Source: Setophaga petechia
Taxonomy: Eukaryota > Chordata > Aves > Passeriformes > Parulidae
Assembly: GCA_024362935.1 (NCBI GenBank)
Contig: JANCRA010000007.1
Location: 22,779,003-22,843,002, forward strand
Length of the DNA stretch: 64,000 bases
Reading direction: 5' to 3'
In this document: in pieces, positions 53,301 to 60,733 of the stretch
Position numbering within the stretch: the first letter of the stretch is position 1
How the letters are laid out: every line of letters starts with the position of its first letter
Made by a program: the position numbers and the translations under genes
The notes under the pieces: model-generated
Seen by the model: only the letters and a program-made list of their open reading frames with translations
Told to the model about the DNA's origin: nothing
Database searches by the model: none

Positions 53301-56300
53301 GGGCCAAGGTGGTGCTGTTCACGCGGCGCAGCGGGGCCCACCTGCGCATCATCGACGGCGGCTCCGGGTACCTCTGCGAGATGGAGCCCGTGGCACACTT
53401 TGGACTGGGTGAGCTAGGGGGTCAGGGGGCTGCCTCCACCCCCAGCCTCGCCTGGCACTCCCCAGGGCAGGGGCCATGTCTGCTGCCCCGGTGTCCTGCT
53501 GCACAGTAATTGTCCCTGCCTGTCACCTTAGGTATGCTGCGCTCCTAGGGTGTAAGGCTGGGGGCAGACTGCCCAGCCACTGCAGCTGTGCTGCAAGGGG
53601 CAGCTGCCCCCTTCCCCATGCCCTGCCTCCTGCTTTGCCCAGGCAGTAGGGCTTTCCCTTCCCTTTAGCTCTCCCCTGGTGCAGCCAAGCCTGCAGGGGT
53701 GTCTCTGCCCACTGCAAGGTCATCCTATGTATGCCCCTCAGAGTACATCCATGTGCGGGGGCTGTCAGCATGAGCACCTGGAGCTGGGCTTAGGGAGCAA
53801 GGGAGGACTTTGCCCCTCCATCCCTACCACCCCTCCTTTCAGCTGGCCTCCTTTCAGCCCCTGCCCATCTTGGAGACCTTCCCTTTGATGGGCTGCCCAC
53901 CTGCAGGGCGTGATGAAGCCAGCAGCCTGGAGGTGACTTGGCCAGATGGCCGCGTGGTGTCACGAGCTGTGGCGAGCAGTGAGACCAACTCTGTCCTGGA
54001 GATCCCCTACCCTCTGGATGTGGAGGAGCCACTCATGCCTGCCCCTCTGGAGGTGAGGGCCAGGTGTGGGTGTAGGGTGTGACACTTTGGGAACAGAAAC
54101 AAGGGGCTGGGCTCTGCTGGCTCAGTGGCTGCCCAGGGGTGATTCCCCCATGGTCTCTGCTTCTTCCCAAATGCAGTGCGGGCAGGGATTCTCCCAGCAC
54201 GAGAATGGACGCTGTGTAGGTGAGTGCTGCTGTAGCACAGGTGTGCCTGTACCCAGGATGCTGTAGCATAGCCCCATGAGGGACACTCTGAGACTGGGAG
54301 GTGGCTGCCTGCCACATGGCTGCGTGCCAGGTACAGCTGCCTGCCTGGCACATGGCCTGGGAATGGGACACCTGTACAGCTCCAGAGGGGCACCATGGTG
54401 TCCTAGGGAACAGCAAGAGCAATGTGCTAGGGCAGGAGGCATGGCTGGCATGTGGTAGGCTATGTGCTGCAGCCATGAGCGATGGGAGGGGCAGCAGAGG
54501 TGCAGCAGGGTGGCTGTGGCCATGCTGTGAGCCTCCTGGGCAGAGATATGGCTTATGCATGGCTGCCAATGGGGTGACCATCCAATGTACCAGGGGAACT
54601 GGAGGGACTGGCAGCCCCAAGCTCTCTGCCCAGACATCTCACACTGAGGACCCTCTTGCAGACACAAATGAGTGTACTGAGTTCCCCTTCATCTGTCCCC
54701 GGGACAAGCCTCTCTGCATCAACACCTATGGCGGGTACCGCTGTCGCAGCAACAAGCGCTGCAGCCGGGGCTTTGAGCCAAACGAGGATGGCACAGCTTG
54801 CGTGGGTGAGTGATAGCTGGGACACCCCGACCCCATGCCAGCTGGCATCAGCCCCAAAGCACCACCTTGGGATGCTGTTGCACCCCTGACAAAGGCCAGG
54901 CTGCAGCCTGCAGCCTGTCAGACGGCAGCCCAGCCACCTCCACCCTGGTTCTCTGCCTGTTTGTCTATGCCTCCCGCTGAGCTGCCACTGACTCCCTTTC
55001 TCTTTCTCTTGTTCCTTCTCTCCTTCTCTGTGCAGCTCAAGTGGCCTTTTTTGGGGGCTATCCCTCTGCTGGGAGCTGGCTGGGGCTCCCCCACAGTGCC
55101 CTCCTCCCTCAAGTCCTCGGACTCTGCCTTTGCCTTTGTCTCTATGCACTTTAAGCCCTGCCCATAACACGCCAGAGCAGCCTTGGTGGAAGGATGGGCT
55201 GGCCTCTCCCTGTCTCTCTTTTTCTGTCCTCGTCGAGCTACCCTGGAAGTGCCGGCTGGGACATAGTGGGGTGACCTGCAGTGGGACGGGCACAGACCTG
55301 GCTGTCCTGTGCCATCTCTGAGAAAGCAGCCCTGGGGCAGCCTGGCAGTGCCCCTTCCCCCACCCACCCCCCTGCCCCGGTGCTGTTCCTGCCATGCTGG
55401 TACCTTGCTCCGTCGCCTCGATACCGTACCATGTGCCTGCTGGTTTGGCCTGCGACTGTGTGCTTCACCTGCCCCCTCCTCGGTGACGGGAACCACCTCC
55501 CCAGCCCTGGCAGAGGAGGCTCTTCCCAGCCCTGCAGGGGCAGGACCCTCCTGGTCCGTTTTTTAACGTATTGACCCTACTGTTTGGAGTCTGACCCTGC
55601 TTAGTCCCAACAGTCTTCCAGCCCCTCTCCCAGAGATCCCCCAATAAACTATATCCCATCTATTAACCTGGTCTGCTGAGCTCTGCAGGGCTGAGCTGTG
55701 CTTGTGCTTCTGCCCACCCTGGGACCTGGCTGGAGAGTGGTGGTGCCCCTGGCCCAGTTCTGCACTGGAACTATAGCAAAATGTGCAGCTCTGAAGGGGC
55801 CGGGGTGCAGCAAGCAGCCCTGTCTGCACCTCAGCAACAGGGCTGGGCTGCTTTTCCCCCCTACATGCTATAACTCCACACTGCTCTCTTTACCCCCACC
55901 AGACATCGACGAGTGTGCTCAGGGCTTGCACAACTGCAGCCAGGTGTGCATCAACAGCCCTGGGGCACACAGCTGCCTCTGCCACCCAGGCTTCCGTCCC
56001 CTCGATCCGGCTGCCAGCCGGTGCCTGGGTGAGTACCTGCAGTGCCCCCCTGCCACTGCCTGGTGCTGCCCTGGCAGCAGAGGTGATCGGGGTGCCCAGT
56101 TGTGCTCACAGCCCTACTGCTGGGGGCAGAATGGACAGACTGTGGCTGTGCAGGAGCTGGTAGAGTAAGGATATCTGCCAACCAGCAGCCTTGGCACCAA
56201 GCAGTGGCAGGGATCACCTGCCTTTGTGTTCCACGTTCACCCAGCCCTGGAGCTGCCCCCTCATGCCTCCTCCATCCCTTGCCCTGCCCATGCCACATAC

Positions 56301-58288
56301 TCCCTGAACCCTTGGCACAGCTCTGACTTTTTCCCCTTCTTTCCCAGACATAGATGAGTGCCAGGCACAGCCTGGTCCCTGTGATCACATCTGCCACAAC
56401 AGCTATGGCTCCTTCCACTGCCACTGTCGCCACGGATTCTCCCTGGGTGCTGGTGGACGCTGCTGGCACAATTAGCCTGCTCTGGCACAGCCAGGTGTTC
56501 CCTGCTACCCCCCAGCACTGTGCTGGTTGCACCCAGTGCCAACAGAATAAACCCTTTCCTGCTTTGTATTCCTTGTGTGTCCCTGTCCCAGGGTCACGTG
56601 CCTGCTACCTGTCCCCCTACTCCCCTAGACTGCCCCCTCCTCTCCATCCCCTCCCTTCCCCCATGCTCAGCCTTGTGGAGCTCTGTGCAACCTAGTGTGA
56701 AAAGAGATACCCAGCCTGATTCTGTGCCCCCACAGCGTTGTCCTGCTCACCTCCCCAACACAAGAAGATGCAGGGTAGGCAGTGGGGGAAGAAGCGTGGG
56801 GTTTATTGAAGGAGGTCTCCATGCAGGGGTGGGGGGGCTCCAGCAGCAACATTGAGGCCGGGGCCACCCCACAAACACATCATGACTGAGCCAAAAGAAG
56901 TCCCACAGGGCAGGGTCCTCCCTCCAGGCTCCCAGGAGAGAAAGGCCAGCTTGGTTCAGCCCTGCTCCCAGATAGGAATTCTTCTCCTTGGGGTGCTGGA
57001 TGTCACAGGGACCCTCCTATTTCCTGCTATCTGACCGTGGACCATGAACCTCCACACCTTGCCGCCAGGCTCAGGTGCCCCTCAAGGTCCCCTCTGACAG
57101 ACCAGGTTGAGAATTGGGGCACTGGTGGCAGATGCATGCAGGACACGTGGGCAGGGGAGGACTCAGCAGTGTGAGAGGAAGGGTCCTTACGGAGCTGCCC
57201 CACTGGGCACCCTCCCTGCATTCGGGCAGGTCATGAGGCAGAGTAGGCAGGGGGCTGCTGGCAGCTGGGTACAGGCAAACTCTACCAGGACTGGGCAGGG
57301 AGCCTGTCTCACCCATGCCACAGCTCAGCCTCGGCTGTGCCGGGCCATGAATGAGTCCAGGAGACATGGCACAGGGGCAGCACCATGCCCAGCACTGCAG
57401 CTCCCTGGCCTGGACACTGGGCTGGAGAGATGCGTGGGTCCAGCTGGGGATGGTAGCAGGTCATGCAGGGAGCAGAAGCAAGTGCCCAGTGTCCTGGCAG
57501 TGAAGGATGCTGCTGGAGAGGATGTAGTGCCAGATGGGGGAAGGGGCTAGGAGAGCAGTAATGGGGCAGTGGGTGGCACAGAGCTGGGGTGAATGCATGG
57601 CCCATCATGCAGAAGAAGCGGCACCAGTGCTCTGCCAGGCCCCCTGAACAGTGCACGAGCAGCAGCCGAGCCACACCACAGCACCAAAGGCAGGCTGCCC
57701 CCAGGAGGGGATGCAGCAAGAGCAGTCAGTGCCTGTGAGTGCGGGGTTGTGCATCCCCTGCTCAGCGCTGCCTGAGGCTTTGCCGCTCCCAGCGCCTGGC
57801 AACAGGGACACAGCCAGCTGGGGCTGCCCCTAGCAGGGCAAGCTCCTTTTGCTTGTGGCAGGGGCGGCAGCACCAAGCACATGGAGGGCTGTAGGAGCCA
57901 CTTGGCAACAGTTCGGCTCAGTGGGAAGCACCTGGGATGCCCCAGCAGCAGTCCCTGTCCACAGTGGGTCCGAGCAGGGGCAGACCCACTGCGGGGGACA
58001 AAGAGCAGATGGGGGTGGGCAGCCCCACCCGATAGCCCCGGCCTCCCCCTGCTGCTCTCGCTGGGCTCAGAAGCGGGTGCTCTGGTAGTGCAGCCTGCGG
58101 AGCTCGGAGAGGCCACTGTCCCGGCAGTACGAGTCCCTGCAGGGACTCCCGGCCAGTCACCGGCCCCCCGCCCCGCCTCCACCGCCACCGCTGCTGCTGC
58201 TGGAGCTGCCGCTGCTGGAGCTGCCGCTGCTGCACCGGTCCTCGTAGATGGAGATCTCGATCTGGACCCTGCTAAGGAACACCGGTGA
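43196..58288 (+). CDS. CRTAC1: CRTAC1, cartilage acidic protein 1 / LOTUS (complete, three alternative 3' ends)
   Basis: Secreted or cell-surface beta-propeller glycoprotein. One isoform is a cartilage matrix marker; the other (LOTUS) antagonises the Nogo receptor in axons. Shared exons: 43196-43240 (inferred), 46942-47138, 48346-48542, 49452-49582, 50197-50353, 50948-51082, 51367-51512, 51693-51829, 52476-52558, 53055-53155, 53240-53408, 53907-54052, 54177-54219, 54662-54805. All phases agree. A hydrophobic signal peptide ([15 protein letters not shown]) precedes calcium-binding FG-GAP/VCBS repeats ([62 protein letters not shown]), then a UnbV/ASPIC domain ([13 protein letters not shown] to EVTWPDG), then an EGF-like module ([18 protein letters not shown]). 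Ending A (58143-58288) gives 658 residues against 661 in human; ending B gives 649; ending C gives 694. Exon 1 is the weakest call. Confidence 0.95.
43241..46941 (+). other. CRTAC1: CRTAC1 intron 1
   Basis: About 3.7 kb between the CpG-island exon and the signal-peptide exon. No exon, RNA gene or repeat array is recognised. Confidence 0.5.
47272..47311 (+). repeat. (TG)20 microsatellite
   Basis: Pure TG dinucleotide run in the intron after the CRTAC1 signal-peptide exon; likely length-polymorphic. Confidence 0.97.
49149..49174 (+). repeat. Poly(T) tract
   Basis: TTTTTTAATTTTTTTTTTTT in a CRTAC1 intron, an unusually AT-rich spot here. It could be the A-tail of a lost minus-strand retroposed copy, but no body is recognisable. 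Confidence 0.7.
55036..55154 (+). CDS. CRTAC1: CRTAC1 ending B: alternative last exon with hydrophobic tail
   Basis: Follows a pyrimidine-rich tract and GTGCAG and continues phase 1 from exon 54662-54805. It encodes [20 protein letters not shown], then [19 protein letters not shown] and a stop. The AQVAF-GGY start and the LGLCL-LYAL end match what I remember of human isoform B (LOTUS). The strongly hydrophobic, unpolar C-terminus fits a GPI-anchor signal or membrane tail. AATAAA follows at 55643. Confidence 0.82.
55643..55648 (+). terminator. CRTAC1: Poly(A) signal for CRTAC1 ending B
   Basis: AATAAA 489 bases after the ending B stop, followed by GGTCTGCTGAG, a GT-rich downstream element. 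It would terminate the shortest transcript. Confidence 0.75.
55903..56028 (+). CDS. CRTAC1: CRTAC1 ending C, first additional cbEGF exon
   Basis: Phase 1 exon (acceptor CCACCAG, donor GTGAGT) encoding [20 protein letters not shown], then [21 protein letters not shown]. This is a complete calcium-binding EGF module: DIDEC opening, six Cys, and an Asn in the beta-hydroxylation consensus position ([10 protein letters not shown]). Splicing from the shared EGF exon joins exactly in frame. I do not recall this module in the human isoforms. Confidence 0.8.
56348..56475 (+). CDS. CRTAC1: CRTAC1 ending C, second additional cbEGF exon with stop
   Basis: Acceptor TTCCCAG, phase 1. It encodes [20 protein letters not shown], then [22 protein letters not shown] and a stop. 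This is a second complete six-Cys cbEGF module that ends the protein three residues after its last Cys. With the shared module it makes three tandem EGF domains. Confidence 0.8.
56546..56551 (+). terminator. CRTAC1: Poly(A) signal for CRTAC1 ending C
   Basis: AATAAA 71 bases after the ending C stop, followed by TTGTGTGTCCC (GT-rich). It supports ending C as a real transcript end rather than leftover exons. Confidence 0.75.
56802..56807 (-). terminator. GOLGA7B: GOLGA7B poly(A) signal (AATAAA on the minus strand)
   Basis: TTTATT on the + strand, about 1.35 kb past the GOLGA7B stop and the first such hexamer on that strand. It sits only about 250 bases from the CRTAC1 ending C signal, so the two genes are almost end to end even without ending A. 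Confidence 0.7.
58143..58288 (+). CDS. CRTAC1: CRTAC1 ending A: Ala-rich last exon, antisense to GOLGA7B coding sequence
   Basis: Acceptor CCTGCAG, phase 1 from exon 54662-54805. It encodes [20 protein letters not shown], a run of Ala and Gly, then [18 protein letters not shown] and a stop. It matches the human isoform A tail as I remember it (GQSP-PRP, poly-Ala, APVLVDGDL), which is reported to be O-glycosylated. The exon covers the whole last GOLGA7B coding exon on the other strand with codon boundaries exactly aligned. No AATAAA follows on the + strand until the LTR at 59436. Confidence 0.85.
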
Positions 58289-60733
58289 GATGTGCCAGCC
58301 CAATTGCCCAGAACCCACACCCAGTCTCCCCTCACCCTTGCCATCCCCCAAGCATCCCGCTGCCCAAAGGATACGACCCTCATGCCACGTTCCAGAGGGT
58401 CAGTGAGCAGCAGCCCCCGTGGTGCATAGATCTTCTCATTCTGGTCCTGGATGTACTTGGAGATCTTCTTCAGGACCTGTCAGCACAGGGAGGGACACTC
58501 AGGGCCTGCCAGCTTTGCTGTCTACTCTGGCCTCAGTCCCATGTTCCCTGTGACATCCCTGGGCCATCCCTGTGCCCACTGGCAGCTGTGCCCATCCCTG
58601 AACCCTCCCCTGCACCTCAGCACCTTCTCGTAATGTGTCTCCATGCAGAGAAAGATGAAATAGGCAGTGGCACAGGCCAGGCACCCCTCGAGATATGAGC
58701 TGCCCCCAATCTTCTCTGCCTCAGCGTAGAAGCCATTTAGGGTTTTCACAGTTTCCTCAAAAAGTTGCCGCTCAATCTAGGACAGAAACCAGGGTGAAGA
58801 GGAGTCTGGCCAGGGACTGACTCCCTGCACCACCTTGTCCCCTTTCCTGGGGGGACTTGGAGAGCACTTAACCCTCTCCTCCCTGCCCAGCTGATGCCTC
58901 AGTTCGCAGGCCCCTGCCTACCTCCCACCCGTACCAAGACATGCTGCACCTGCAGCCTTCACCAGAGCCTCCCAGTCCCCAGGAGCACCAAAGGCCTTGC
59001 ACACCAGCCAAGCCAGCTGTGACTTCATACACCCAGCAGCACTGACTGGCCCAGGGCTTTACAACACCCCGTAAGTCCCCACACCTTTAGACCCTTCTTC
59101 CCTTTGAGTCCCCATAGGGCGCCCCCCTGTCGCTGACATCTTTTGTGAAAAATCCTTTCTTAGGATTTTTCCTGCTGGAGCTGAGAAGAAGCTCAGTAAC
59201 AAATGTAAACAATTATTATCTGCTGCTGTGGAATGCAACAGGTCCACCTGTGATTGGTCTTCTGTGGATGTTTGGATTTACTGACCACTCATAGTGAAGC
59301 TGCTATCACTCTCTGCTGAGAGACAGACTTTTATTATTCTTTCTATTCTATTCTTAGCTTAGCCAGCTTCTGAAGAAGCTCCTTTCCTTTCTATTCCCAT
59401 GTAGTGTAGTTATAATGTTATATATATCATAAGATAATAAATCAAGCCTTCTGATAATGGAATCAAGATTCCTCGTCTCTCCCATCCTCTAAAAACCCCT
59501 GTGACCACCGTCACACCCCCCCACCCTGACAACCTCTCAGACTCCCTACCCGGCTCTCCAGCTCAGGGGGAAACTTTGTCTGGAACTGGCACGTGGTCCC
59601 GTCACTGTAATCCCGCTGCACAAAGACCTTGGTGGCCAGGGACGCGCTGCGCCGCAGCTCCTGCAGGCTGTGCACCTGAGGGCAGAGGGTGAGACGGGGC
59701 CTGCGGCCAAGGGTGCTGGGCATCCCTACTGGAGGGCTGGGGAGCAGCGCCATTCCCCAGTGTCAGAGGCTGCAGGGAGCCCCTGGCACAGCCTGTGTCA
59801 CGCCATGAGCACAGCCTGGCACTGGAGGTGCGAGGCAGGGAGCAAGGGGAGGATGGAGGCAAGGGGAGGATGCTGTGGCAGCCCCCTGCTCCACAGGAAG
59901 GAGGGTGTGTGCTTTTGGCCCGGACTGGTGTCTGGTCTCACCCCCAGTGGTTCCTGCACACATGAGTGTGTGTTGCCAGCAGGCCATGGCCCACGGAGGG
60001 GACAGACCCCTGTTCCCAACAGTGCCCCAGAGCACAGCCAACCCAACAGCTCCCAACAGGAGGATGGGAGTGAGGCGAGCAGGAGCAGGGACTGGACAGC
60101 AGGGCTGCAGCAGTGGCCCAGCGTGTGGGCAGGCTGCAGTGGGGCGTCCTCATGAAAAGGACCGGCAGCCCCAGCAGTAGGTGCTAAGCCCTGACTCCCC
60201 ACAGGGTGTAAGAGCCCGTGCCAGCCCCCGAGCTGCAGCCTGTGGGGCAGCTTTGGTGGCTGGAGAAGGGGATGGAGGTGCCAGGTTGTGCCAAGGCCTG
60301 TCCCCGCACTTCCTCTGGGTGACATGGGGCTACTGCCTGCTCCGTGCCCCTCAGACCGTCTGAGGCCGTCCCGCGTCCGACCTCCGGCATTTGGGAGGAG
60401 AACCGCCAGTCCCACAGCCCAACCCAGACCCGCTCCAGCCTTCACCAAAGGCAGCCTGCAGCCACCCTGCACCTCACAGCCCTTCAGGCCCCTCACCGGC
60501 CTTTCCACGCCCACGGAGCCCTCTCTTCCCCACACCGCTGTCTCCACGGACCCCCGCCCCACGCTGTCCCCCCGCAGCAGCGCGCCCCACTCGGACCGAG
60601 TCCCGTCGGTGCCGCTCCCCGGCAGCGCAGGGCGGCGGACACCGCGGGCCGGGGAGCTCCGCCGCAGCCCGGCCCGGGGGTGCCGCCGCCGGGGCGCCCC
60701 CGCCGCGCCGCCCGCACCCACCTCCGTGGCCAT
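58157..60733 (-). CDS. GOLGA7B: GOLGA7B, palmitoyltransferase accessory subunit (complete, five coding exons)
   Basis: Golgin A7 family member that partners DHHC palmitoyltransferases (ZDHHC5 for GOLGA7B) and controls their stability and plasma-membrane localisation. Coding exons in transcript order: 60733-60722 (MATE only), 59675-59550, 58776-58624, 58476-58375, 58261-58157; phases agree (165 codons; human 167). Recognisable blocks are [40 protein letters not shown] and [20 protein letters not shown]. The Cys pair in GCLAC (residues 78 and 81) corresponds to the palmitoylated pair of GOLGA7. Then come [10 protein letters not shown] and [20 protein letters not shown], followed by a Ser/Gly tail. 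The first coding exon is only 12 nt. The last intron has U12 signals. The final exon is wholly antisense to CRTAC1 ending A. The upstream frame is open in the CpG island, but the family start at MATE is preferred. Confidence 0.95.
58262..58374 (-). other. GOLGA7B: U12-type GT-AG intron of GOLGA7B
   Basis: The donor reads GTATCCTTT, a perfect U12 5' splice site. Near the other end TTCCTTAGC resembles the U12 branch site, with the acceptor TCCAG about 11 nt beyond the branch A and no long pyrimidine tract. This choice gives R-V-I-E-I-S exactly as in human; a U2 reading would insert extra residues. The intron is 113 nt. Confidence 0.85.
59128..59515 (+). mobile_element. Solo LTR of an endogenous retrovirus in GOLGA7B intron 2
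   Basis: A 388-bp element beginning TGTCGCTGACATC and ending CCACCGTCACA (TG...CA ends), flanked by six C residues on both sides, a plausible target-site duplication. It is AT-rich, contains AATAAA at 59436-59441 near its 3' end and has no internal coding region, so it is a solo LTR in + orientation. It resembles LTRs I associate with songbird genomes. Its end is only 34 bases inside the intron from the GOLGA7B exon 2 donor. There is no gag, pol or env. Confidence 0.72.
59436..59441 (+). terminator. LTR-derived AATAAA, first + strand poly(A) signal after CRTAC1 ending A
   Basis: Reading the + strand from the ending A stop (58288) I find no AATAAA or ATTAAA until this hexamer in the LTR, about 1.15 kb downstream. 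It could end CRTAC1-A transcripts in this lineage; a non-canonical nearer site is also possible. Confidence 0.4.

What the first reader, a model, noticed from the sequence alone, without database searches (positions are those of the whole stretch)
58143..58288. Two genes encode protein from the same bases: CRTAC1 ending A and the last GOLGA7B exon, in exact antisense codon register
Seen: the + strand exon 58143-58288 continues CRTAC1 in frame and matches the human CRTAC1-A tail. The minus strand of 58157-58261 is the final 34 codons and stop of GOLGA7B. Codon boundaries coincide (GAT/ATC at 58259-58261), so every CRTAC1 Ala codon GCN faces a Ser/Gly/Cys-type NGC codon, and second positions pair. 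Hence poly-Ala on one strand mirrors the poly-Ser/Gly tail on the other, and APVLVDGDL mirrors [10 protein letters not shown]. Human proteins recalled from memory obey the same mirror, so the overlap appears conserved for at least 300 million years. Each protein limits the other's evolution; the low-complexity tails may exist because of the pairing.
Basis: partly seen in the sequence, partly recalled or inferred. Interest (0 to 1): 0.92.

Follow-up and report, generated by a model that had tools for sequence, protein, structure and literature searches.

The report
Antisense coding overlap of CRTAC1 and GOLGA7B
In this bird genome the last coding exon of one gene lies codon-for-codon on top of an alternative last exon of its neighbour on the other strand; gene models from mammals show the same arrangement, but most of the apparent two-way conservation is explained by only one of the two proteins being preserved.

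Summary
The sequence observation is correct. The + strand exon 58143-58288 continues CRTAC1 in frame; minus 58261-58157 is the last GOLGA7B exon, in exact codon register. Annotated CRTAC1-A tails of therian mammals are reverse-complement compatible with GOLGA7B tails (0 of 36-38 codon pairs incompatible in six cases; shuffles average 17-19), so the overlap is no bird accident. A pangolin sequence inferred from two protein frames agrees with the bird in the 19 determined bases across acceptor, exon start and GOLGA7B stop, though one of three pangolins departs at the acceptor. GOLGA7B's Ser-rich tail also occurs in sharks and fishes. The antisense frame would be open half the time by chance. In the anchor [15 protein letters not shown]1 varies at 4 of 10 positions, by changes silent for GOLGA7B; beyond the overlap CRTAC1-A drifts, and its stop is lost in a killdeer model. 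CRTAC1-A looks like an ending overprinted on an older GOLGA7B exon. Use of the exon in birds is not shown. Closest known case: THRA/NR1D1. Side find: an open, coding-like frame after the GOLGA7B stop, a weak candidate readthrough extension.

The parts
54662..54805 (+). CRTAC1 EGF exon (DTNEC...DGTACV), phase-1 donor; common upstream exon of the alternative endings
   Evidence: mammalian and bird homologs
55036..55154 (+). CRTAC1 ending B ([13 protein letters not shown]...LCLYAL*), hydrophobic tail
   Evidence: same kind of tail in many annotated bird models; AATAAA at 55643
55903..56028 (+). extra EGF exon 2 ([14 protein letters not shown]...), phase 1-1, not seen in the mammalian CRTAC1 models listed
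   Evidence: similar exon in bird, turtle and lizard models
56348..56475 (+). extra EGF exon 3 ending GGRCWHN*, a third alternative CRTAC1 ending
   Evidence: AATAAA at 56546
58143..58288 (+). CRTAC1 ending A: alternative last coding exon (GTPGQSP...[18 protein letters not shown])
   Evidence: homologous tails in 12 therian gene models; AATAAA at 59436
58157..58261 (-). GOLGA7B last coding exon, 34 codons + TGA, in register with CRTAC1-A
58375..58476 (-). GOLGA7B coding exon [10 protein letters not shown]...RGMRV
58624..58776 (-). GOLGA7B coding exon IERQLFEE...HYEK
59550..59675 (-). GOLGA7B coding exon VHSLQELRR...PELESR
58139..58159 (.). conserved core: CRTAC1-A acceptor, first codons of exon A and GOLGA7B stop; 0 of 19 determined bases differ from the inferred pangolin composite (the A of the acceptor AG is undetermined, and Manis javanica departs at the G)
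58067..58156 (-). open frame after the GOLGA7[33 protein letters not shown] (candidate readthrough extension or alternative end); antisense to the CRTAC1-A splice-acceptor region
   Evidence: its last 26 residues are in Calidris model P0096
58131..58148 (.). perfect 18-base palindrome across the CRTAC1-A splice junction, the only one of this length in the window

Best explanation
CRTAC1 and GOLGA7B are convergent neighbours. CRTAC1 has several alternative 3' ends reached from the same phase-1 EGF exon. The most distal, ending A, splices into a site 14 bases past the GOLGA7B stop codon and reads backwards through GOLGA7B's last coding exon in the same codon register. Shown: the anatomy in the bird, and the same mirror in therian gene models. 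Inferred: GOLGA7B's exon is the older, selected frame; CRTAC1-A arose by exonisation of its antisense strand. The mirror carries GOLGA7B's conservation over ([10 protein letters not shown] gives APVLVDGDL[DN]; AGC/GGC repeats give poly-Ala), so the CRTAC1-A tail is largely a passive shadow. What CRTAC1 gains is an open ending without the hydrophobic B tail, that is a soluble form instead of a membrane form, so little sequence constraint is needed. In birds the exon is probably an inherited, usable ending (about 0.55), but its use is not demonstrated. Possible regulation (inferred): in neurons GOLGA7B is transcribed and CRTAC1 stops at B; elsewhere A can be reached.
For: Anatomy and register. 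Therian CRTAC1-A tails: 12 of 12 hits of the tail-only search are therian models. Mirror test: 7 of 13 tails, the window included, have a GOLGA7B tail with 0 incompatible codon pairs (seal/black bear 36; two Myotis/Eptesicus 38; opossums Monodelphis/Gracilinanus 38; macaque and colobus/rabbit 37; the window's is its own DNA), against shuffle means of 16-19 and minima of 8-11. Killdeer partial tail: 0 of 19 incompatible with each of 15 bird tails picked by hand, the window's among them. DNA inferred for pangolin: 0 of 19 differences at acceptor/exon start/stop, 21 of 76 upstream, Fisher P = 0.010 (boundaries set after seeing the data). GOLGA7B tail older: 9 of 9 non-tetrapod tails picked from the list are Ser-rich. 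One-sided variation: CRTAC1 anchor variable at 4 of 10 positions in 12 tails; 17 of 18 GOLGA7B-silent changes there would alter CRTAC1. Human A and B terminal exons, B with a transmembrane domain and brain-only, A in cartilage and lung: passages of PMC4945026. GOLGA7B enriched in neurons: passages of PMC9904442 and PMC9365392. [quoted passage not shown]
Against: No bird or reptile protein among the 103 returned joins the EGF exon directly to exon A; only killdeer P0224 carries part of it, by another predicted junction. This absence is weak: the set is clustered at 90% identity, only 7990 candidates were scored, and isoforms differing only in the tail can be hidden. Birds have another non-hydrophobic ending (extra EGF exons), so A may be dispensable. 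The bird A acceptor has only 11 of 20 pyrimidines, against 18 of 20 at B. The Manis javanica model has Arg where bird and Smutsia have Gly at codon 58142-58144, which removes the G of the acceptor AG there, and the A is undetermined in the composite. Six of 13 tails have no fully compatible partner in the list. A single-base table is not lopsided by itself: 70 changes are GOLGA7B-silent only, 97 CRTAC1-silent only. Therian sequences are gene models, not observed proteins. In mouse cartilage RACE found the B form (PMC4945026).
Confidence: 0.7

Rival explanations
1. One reading: both proteins are under selection in the overlap, each limits the other, and the low-complexity tails exist because of the pairing.
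For: Perfect register; the frame recurs from marsupials to primates; acceptor core with 0 of 19 differences between bird and inferred pangolin DNA.
Against: Ser-rich GOLGA7B tails in sharks and fishes; CRTAC1 varies at GOLGA7B-silent sites and drifts outside the overlap: its stop is TGA in the window but aligns with a Trp in the killdeer model, and therian ends differ; GCT-type repeats, period 3 and 15, give homopolymers on both strands without selection.
Confidence: 0.12
2. In birds the + strand frame is an unused relic: the acceptor AG and the open frame persist only because GOLGA7B and its 3'UTR are conserved, and CRTAC1-A is used only in therian mammals.
For: No bird or reptile model among 103 hits with the EGF-to-A junction; weak acceptor; a precedent in which platypus and bird DNA keep an antisense frame like TRalpha2 without TRalpha2 (PMC4569393, section read); P(open) = 0.51 by chance.
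Against: Phase and first codons are kept between bird and mammals (more than 300 million years, recalled) in a core conserved above its flank.
Confidence: 0.38
3. The overlap is kept for regulation: GOLGA7B transcription interferes with the distal A exon, so neurons make B and other tissues make A, as discussed for Rev-erb-alpha and TRalpha2.
For: Complementary expression statements: B brain-only, A in cartilage and lung (PMC4945026); GOLGA7B neuronal.
Against: Correlation only, from different studies; mouse cartilage has the B form although Golga7b was not detected in NIH/3T3 cells.
Confidence: 0.25

Closest known systems
THRA (TRalpha2) / NR1D1 (Rev-erb-alpha) antisense coding overlap
   Same: Convergent genes; an alternative last exon of one gene runs antisense through the last coding exon of the other; the splice acceptor lies just past the partner's stop codon (about 60 bp there, 14 bases here); the isoforms differ in function (PMC4569393: abstract and three sections; PMC3047299: abstract and passages).
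   Different: TRalpha2 was not detected in marsupials and platypus lacks its splice elements; CRTAC1-A models exist in two marsupials and the exon is intact in this bird. The overlap here is short (35 codons) and low in complexity.
CRTAC1 isoforms A/B (human exons 15A/15B)
   Same: Same gene and, by homology, the same two terminal exons (PMC4945026 passages).
   Different: No passage seen describes the A exon as antisense coding of GOLGA7B; PMC10477339 notes gene-level overlap only.
POU5F1/TCF19 exon sharing on opposite strands
   Same: Human antisense gene pair sharing exons (PMC8493703 abstract).
   Different: Two shared exons and an intron between splice variants, not a last-exon overlap.

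Membership tests
Antisense coding overlap at an alternative last exon (THRA/NR1D1 type) | Convergent genes with CDS of both on opposite strands of the same bases | tested here: met
   in the bird; mirror in therian gene models
Antisense coding overlap at an alternative last exon (THRA/NR1D1 type) | The overlapping exon is one of several alternative endings | tested here: met
   B, extra-EGF and A endings in compatible phase; predicted from sequence and homologs
Antisense coding overlap at an alternative last exon (THRA/NR1D1 type) | Both transcripts expressed in this species | not testable with these tools
   no RNA data; bird models returned lack the EGF-to-A junction, inconclusive because of 90% clustering
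Antisense coding overlap at an alternative last exon (THRA/NR1D1 type) | Partner transcription regulates choice of the overlapping exon | not tested
   only complementary expression statements in papers
Overprinting (new coding frame on an older gene) | One frame demonstrably older | tested here: inconclusive
   GOLGA7B Ser-rich tail in 9 of 9 non-tetrapods picked; CRTAC1-A tail hits only in therians, but absence from fishes and amphibians was not established
Overprinting (new coding frame on an older gene) | New frame under its own selection | tested here: inconclusive
   one-sided variation in the anchor; no vertebrate DNA set for rate tests
Stop-codon readthrough extension (GOLGA7B) | Coding-like substitution pattern after an in-frame stop | tested here: inconclusive
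   8 nonsynonymous codons against 12.2 expected, P = 0.006, best of six frames tested, one bird versus one composite pangolin sequence

The most novel reading that the evidence does not exclude
One stretch of about 220 bases carries three stacked functions kept across amniotes: GOLGA7B's tail, CRTAC1-A read in mirror register from the other strand, and a conserved GOLGA7B readthrough extension (LAGSPCR...LRRLxYQSTRF) lying antisense to the CRTAC1-A splice acceptor; and GOLGA7B transcription in neurons decides whether CRTAC1 ends as the membrane (B) or the secreted (A) form.
Probability: 0.12. Interest if true: 0.8.

Novelty: new member of a known kind. Interest (0 to 1): 0.5.

Why it matters
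Antisense coding-coding overlaps of vertebrate genes are seldom followed over long evolutionary time. This one is short, in exact codon register and present in therian models and, as DNA, in a bird; almost every change that is silent for one protein alters the other. That makes the question of which protein selection sees directly testable with existing genomes. It also warns that a conserved, in-frame, matching antisense peptide can be a shadow of the other gene.

Tried and rejected
Searching IMG/VR and GTDB contigs for stray vertebrate DNA of the locus gave no relative, so no vertebrate DNA alignment beyond the window was made. A search for a processed copy of the spliced junction in the bird genome found only the two exons themselves, so it says nothing. 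Folding of both strands around the acceptor is no more stable than shuffles (z 0.70 and -0.32). A bacterial promoter/terminator scan was empty and is irrelevant. Structures: the PDB holds a CRTAC1 chain matching up to the end of the EGF domain and two GOLGA7 chains, none matching the tails in question (with the tail alone gave only chance matches). I rejected 'open antisense frame = gene' because the frame is open by chance half the time. I rejected 'no bird protein has it, so birds lack it' because the protein set is clustered at 90% identity.

Literature: ten searches. In their listings, and in the passages opened, I saw no description of the coding overlap; the library holds open-licence papers only, so this is not proof that it is unpublished. 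Human sequence was not compared; 'more than 300 million years' is recalled.

'One frame older' was changed from met to inconclusive.

Full report
What is there. The EGF exon of CRTAC1 (54662-54805) ends in phase 1. Spliced to 58143 (ctgcag|GG) it continues as [49 protein letters not shown] and stops at 58286-58288. On the minus strand, 58261-58157 encodes [34 protein letters not shown] and TGA, the last exon of GOLGA7B; three more coding exons lie at 58375-58476, 58624-58776 and 59550-59675. The two frames share codon boundaries over 35 codons, and the Ser codon TCA of CRTAC1 faces the GOLGA7B stop. The window lies in a bird genome of 1.22 Gb (that it is a bird follows from the homologs); the Agelaius tricolor model P0135 is 100% identical over the 56% of the CRTAC1 query region it covers.

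Is it more than chance. The open frame alone is not: with codon usage of the local exons the register antisense frame of this tail is open in 51% of simulations, the other two in 5% and 25%. Poly-Ala is what AGC and GGC codons read backwards, and the stretch is a GCT-type repeat of period 3 and 15. Recurrence elsewhere is the real evidence. A tail-only search returned 12 proteins, all therian gene models: deer, elephant seal (a cluster of 636), two Myotis, macaque, colobus, Tasmanian devil, opossum and four pangolin models (7993 candidates scored). Reversed and compared codon by codon with 107 GOLGA7B tails (of 121 proteins), 7 of 13 CRTAC1-A tails, the window included, have an equal-length partner with no incompatible pair; 2 have one incompatible pair, and the 4 pangolin models have two, having only two equal-length partners, both from Morphnus, a bird. 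Shuffled tails average 16-19 incompatible pairs, minimum 7-11. Partners are mostly related species (seal with bear, Myotis with Eptesicus, opossum with opossum); macaque and colobus pair with rabbit; no pair outside the window is of one species. A partial killdeer tail fits each of 15 hand-picked bird GOLGA7B tails (0 of 19 incompatible).

Pangolin DNA. Pangolin gene models read this DNA in two frames (P0131 and P0221 in the A frame, P0213 in the third frame). The two frames have no common solution as they stand: Manis javanica has Arg where Smutsia and the bird have Gly at the codon spanning the splice junction, which would remove the G of its acceptor AG. With that one residue taken from Smutsia, 103 of 108 bases are fixed. 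Against the bird, 0 of 19 determined bases differ across acceptor, first codons and GOLGA7B stop (58139-58159; the A of the AG is one of two undetermined), 21 of 76 differ upstream; Fisher P = 0.010. The boundaries follow anatomy but were chosen after seeing the data. So the arrangement is conserved as DNA, but at least one pangolin seems to have lost this acceptor.

Which frame is selected. GOLGA7B's Ser-rich tail is present in 9 of 9 non-tetrapods picked from the list: shark, chimaera, gar, paddlefish, coelacanth, lungfish, zebrafish, trumpetfish and eel, so it need not depend on pairing; whether those animals have CRTAC1-A was not established. In the anchor [10 protein letters not shown] the CRTAC1 mirror varies at 4 of 10 positions in 12 tails (P/A/T, V/I, D/N, D/N), changes that the codon table makes silent for GOLGA7B. 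Among the mammalian GOLGA7B proteins that carry the anchor in the list (best 120 of 787 shown), it departs only in rabbit (IEIAV), Chinese hamster (IEIAI) and a platypus model with M for the first I; the rabbit and hamster changes would in turn be silent for CRTAC1. Over the 35 codons, 70 single changes are silent only for GOLGA7B, 97 only for CRTAC1 and 2 for both. Past the GOLGA7B exon the CRTAC1-A end drifts: DPAKEHR* in the window, GPDKDHQWDVPATNLIA in killdeer, and varied ends in therians. Most of the conservation of CRTAC1-A inside the overlap is therefore explicable by GOLGA7B alone. The exception is the short exon start T[LP]GQ (S for T in Myotis), outside the GOLGA7B CDS but inside the conserved core.

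Birds. Bird models returned end in the B tail, in one or two extra EGF domains, or in other predicted ends; none of the 103 hits joins the EGF exon directly to A in a bird or reptile. Because proteins were clustered at 90% identity and only 7990 candidates were scored, tail isoforms may be hidden, so this is weak. The B, extra-EGF and A acceptors in the window are all compatible with the phase-1 donor. The A acceptor has a poor pyrimidine tract, 11 of 20 against 18 of 20 at B; the GOLGA7B last-exon acceptor also has 11 of 20. A + strand AATAAA lies at 59436. I put the chance that birds use the exon at about 0.55.

How it works. Human CRTAC1 uses terminal exon 15A or 15B; B carries a transmembrane segment and is described as brain-only, A is in cartilage and lung, and RACE in mouse cartilage found the B form (PMC4945026, passages). 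GOLGA7B is neuronal (PMC9904442, PMC9365392, passages). The simplest mechanism: skipping B lets transcription run on into GOLGA7B, and the antisense of its last exon supplies a harmless, soluble ending. Interference from GOLGA7B transcription in neurons would favour B; this last step is inference only.

Known relatives. The arrangement is that of TRalpha2/Rev-erb-alpha (PMC4569393: abstract and three sections; PMC3047299: abstract and passages). That work also gives the warning used here: platypus and bird DNA keep an antisense sequence like TRalpha2 although TRalpha2 is known only from mammals and platypus lacks it. Human CRTAC1 and GOLGA7B are stated to overlap head-to-tail in PMC10477339 (passage). 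In ten searches (listings, with passages of the papers opened) I saw no description of the coding overlap.

Side result. After the GOLGA7B TGA the same frame reads [29 protein letters not shown] and stops. A Calidris model (P0096) contains the last 26 of these residues unchanged, reached by a predicted splice. The inferred pangolin version is LAGSPCREVYGRTVGLADLRRLRYQSTRF, its closing stop ambiguous. Between them 8 codons change the residue and 4 do not; random placement of the same 18 changes gives 12.2 changed (P = 0.006; the other five frames 0.03-0.57). This suggests a readthrough extension or alternative end of GOLGA7B, on thin evidence: one bird, one composite pangolin, six frames tested.

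Noticed in passing
58067-58156 (-): Open frame after the GOLGA7B stop (UGA CUG G), [29 protein letters not shown], with a coding-like pattern against inferred pangolin DNA (P = 0.006, best of six frames) and 26 identical residues in a Calidris model: candidate stop-codon readthrough extension.
   Followed up: partly
58131-58148: Perfect 18-base palindrome GAGTCCCTGCAGGGACTC across the CRTAC1-A splice junction, the only perfect one of that length in the window; not perfect in the inferred pangolin DNA.
   Followed up: partly
55903-56475 (+): Two extra EGF exons give CRTAC1 a third ending (GGRCWHN*) in this bird; turtle and lizard models have similar ones, the mammalian models listed do not.
   Followed up: partly
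P0224 (killdeer CRTAC1 model): The CRTAC1-A frame runs past the window's stop position (TGA here, aligned with Trp there) for ten more residues.
   Followed up: partly
P0131 (Manis javanica CRTAC1 model): Arg instead of Gly at the codon spanning the A splice junction implies loss of the acceptor G in this pangolin; its model reads through the intron instead.
   Followed up: partly
P0055 (Natator depressus) and P0050-P0052 (bovids): GOLGA7B models whose Ser-rich tail is replaced by a different ending, perhaps alternative splicing or a frameshifted model.
   Followed up: no
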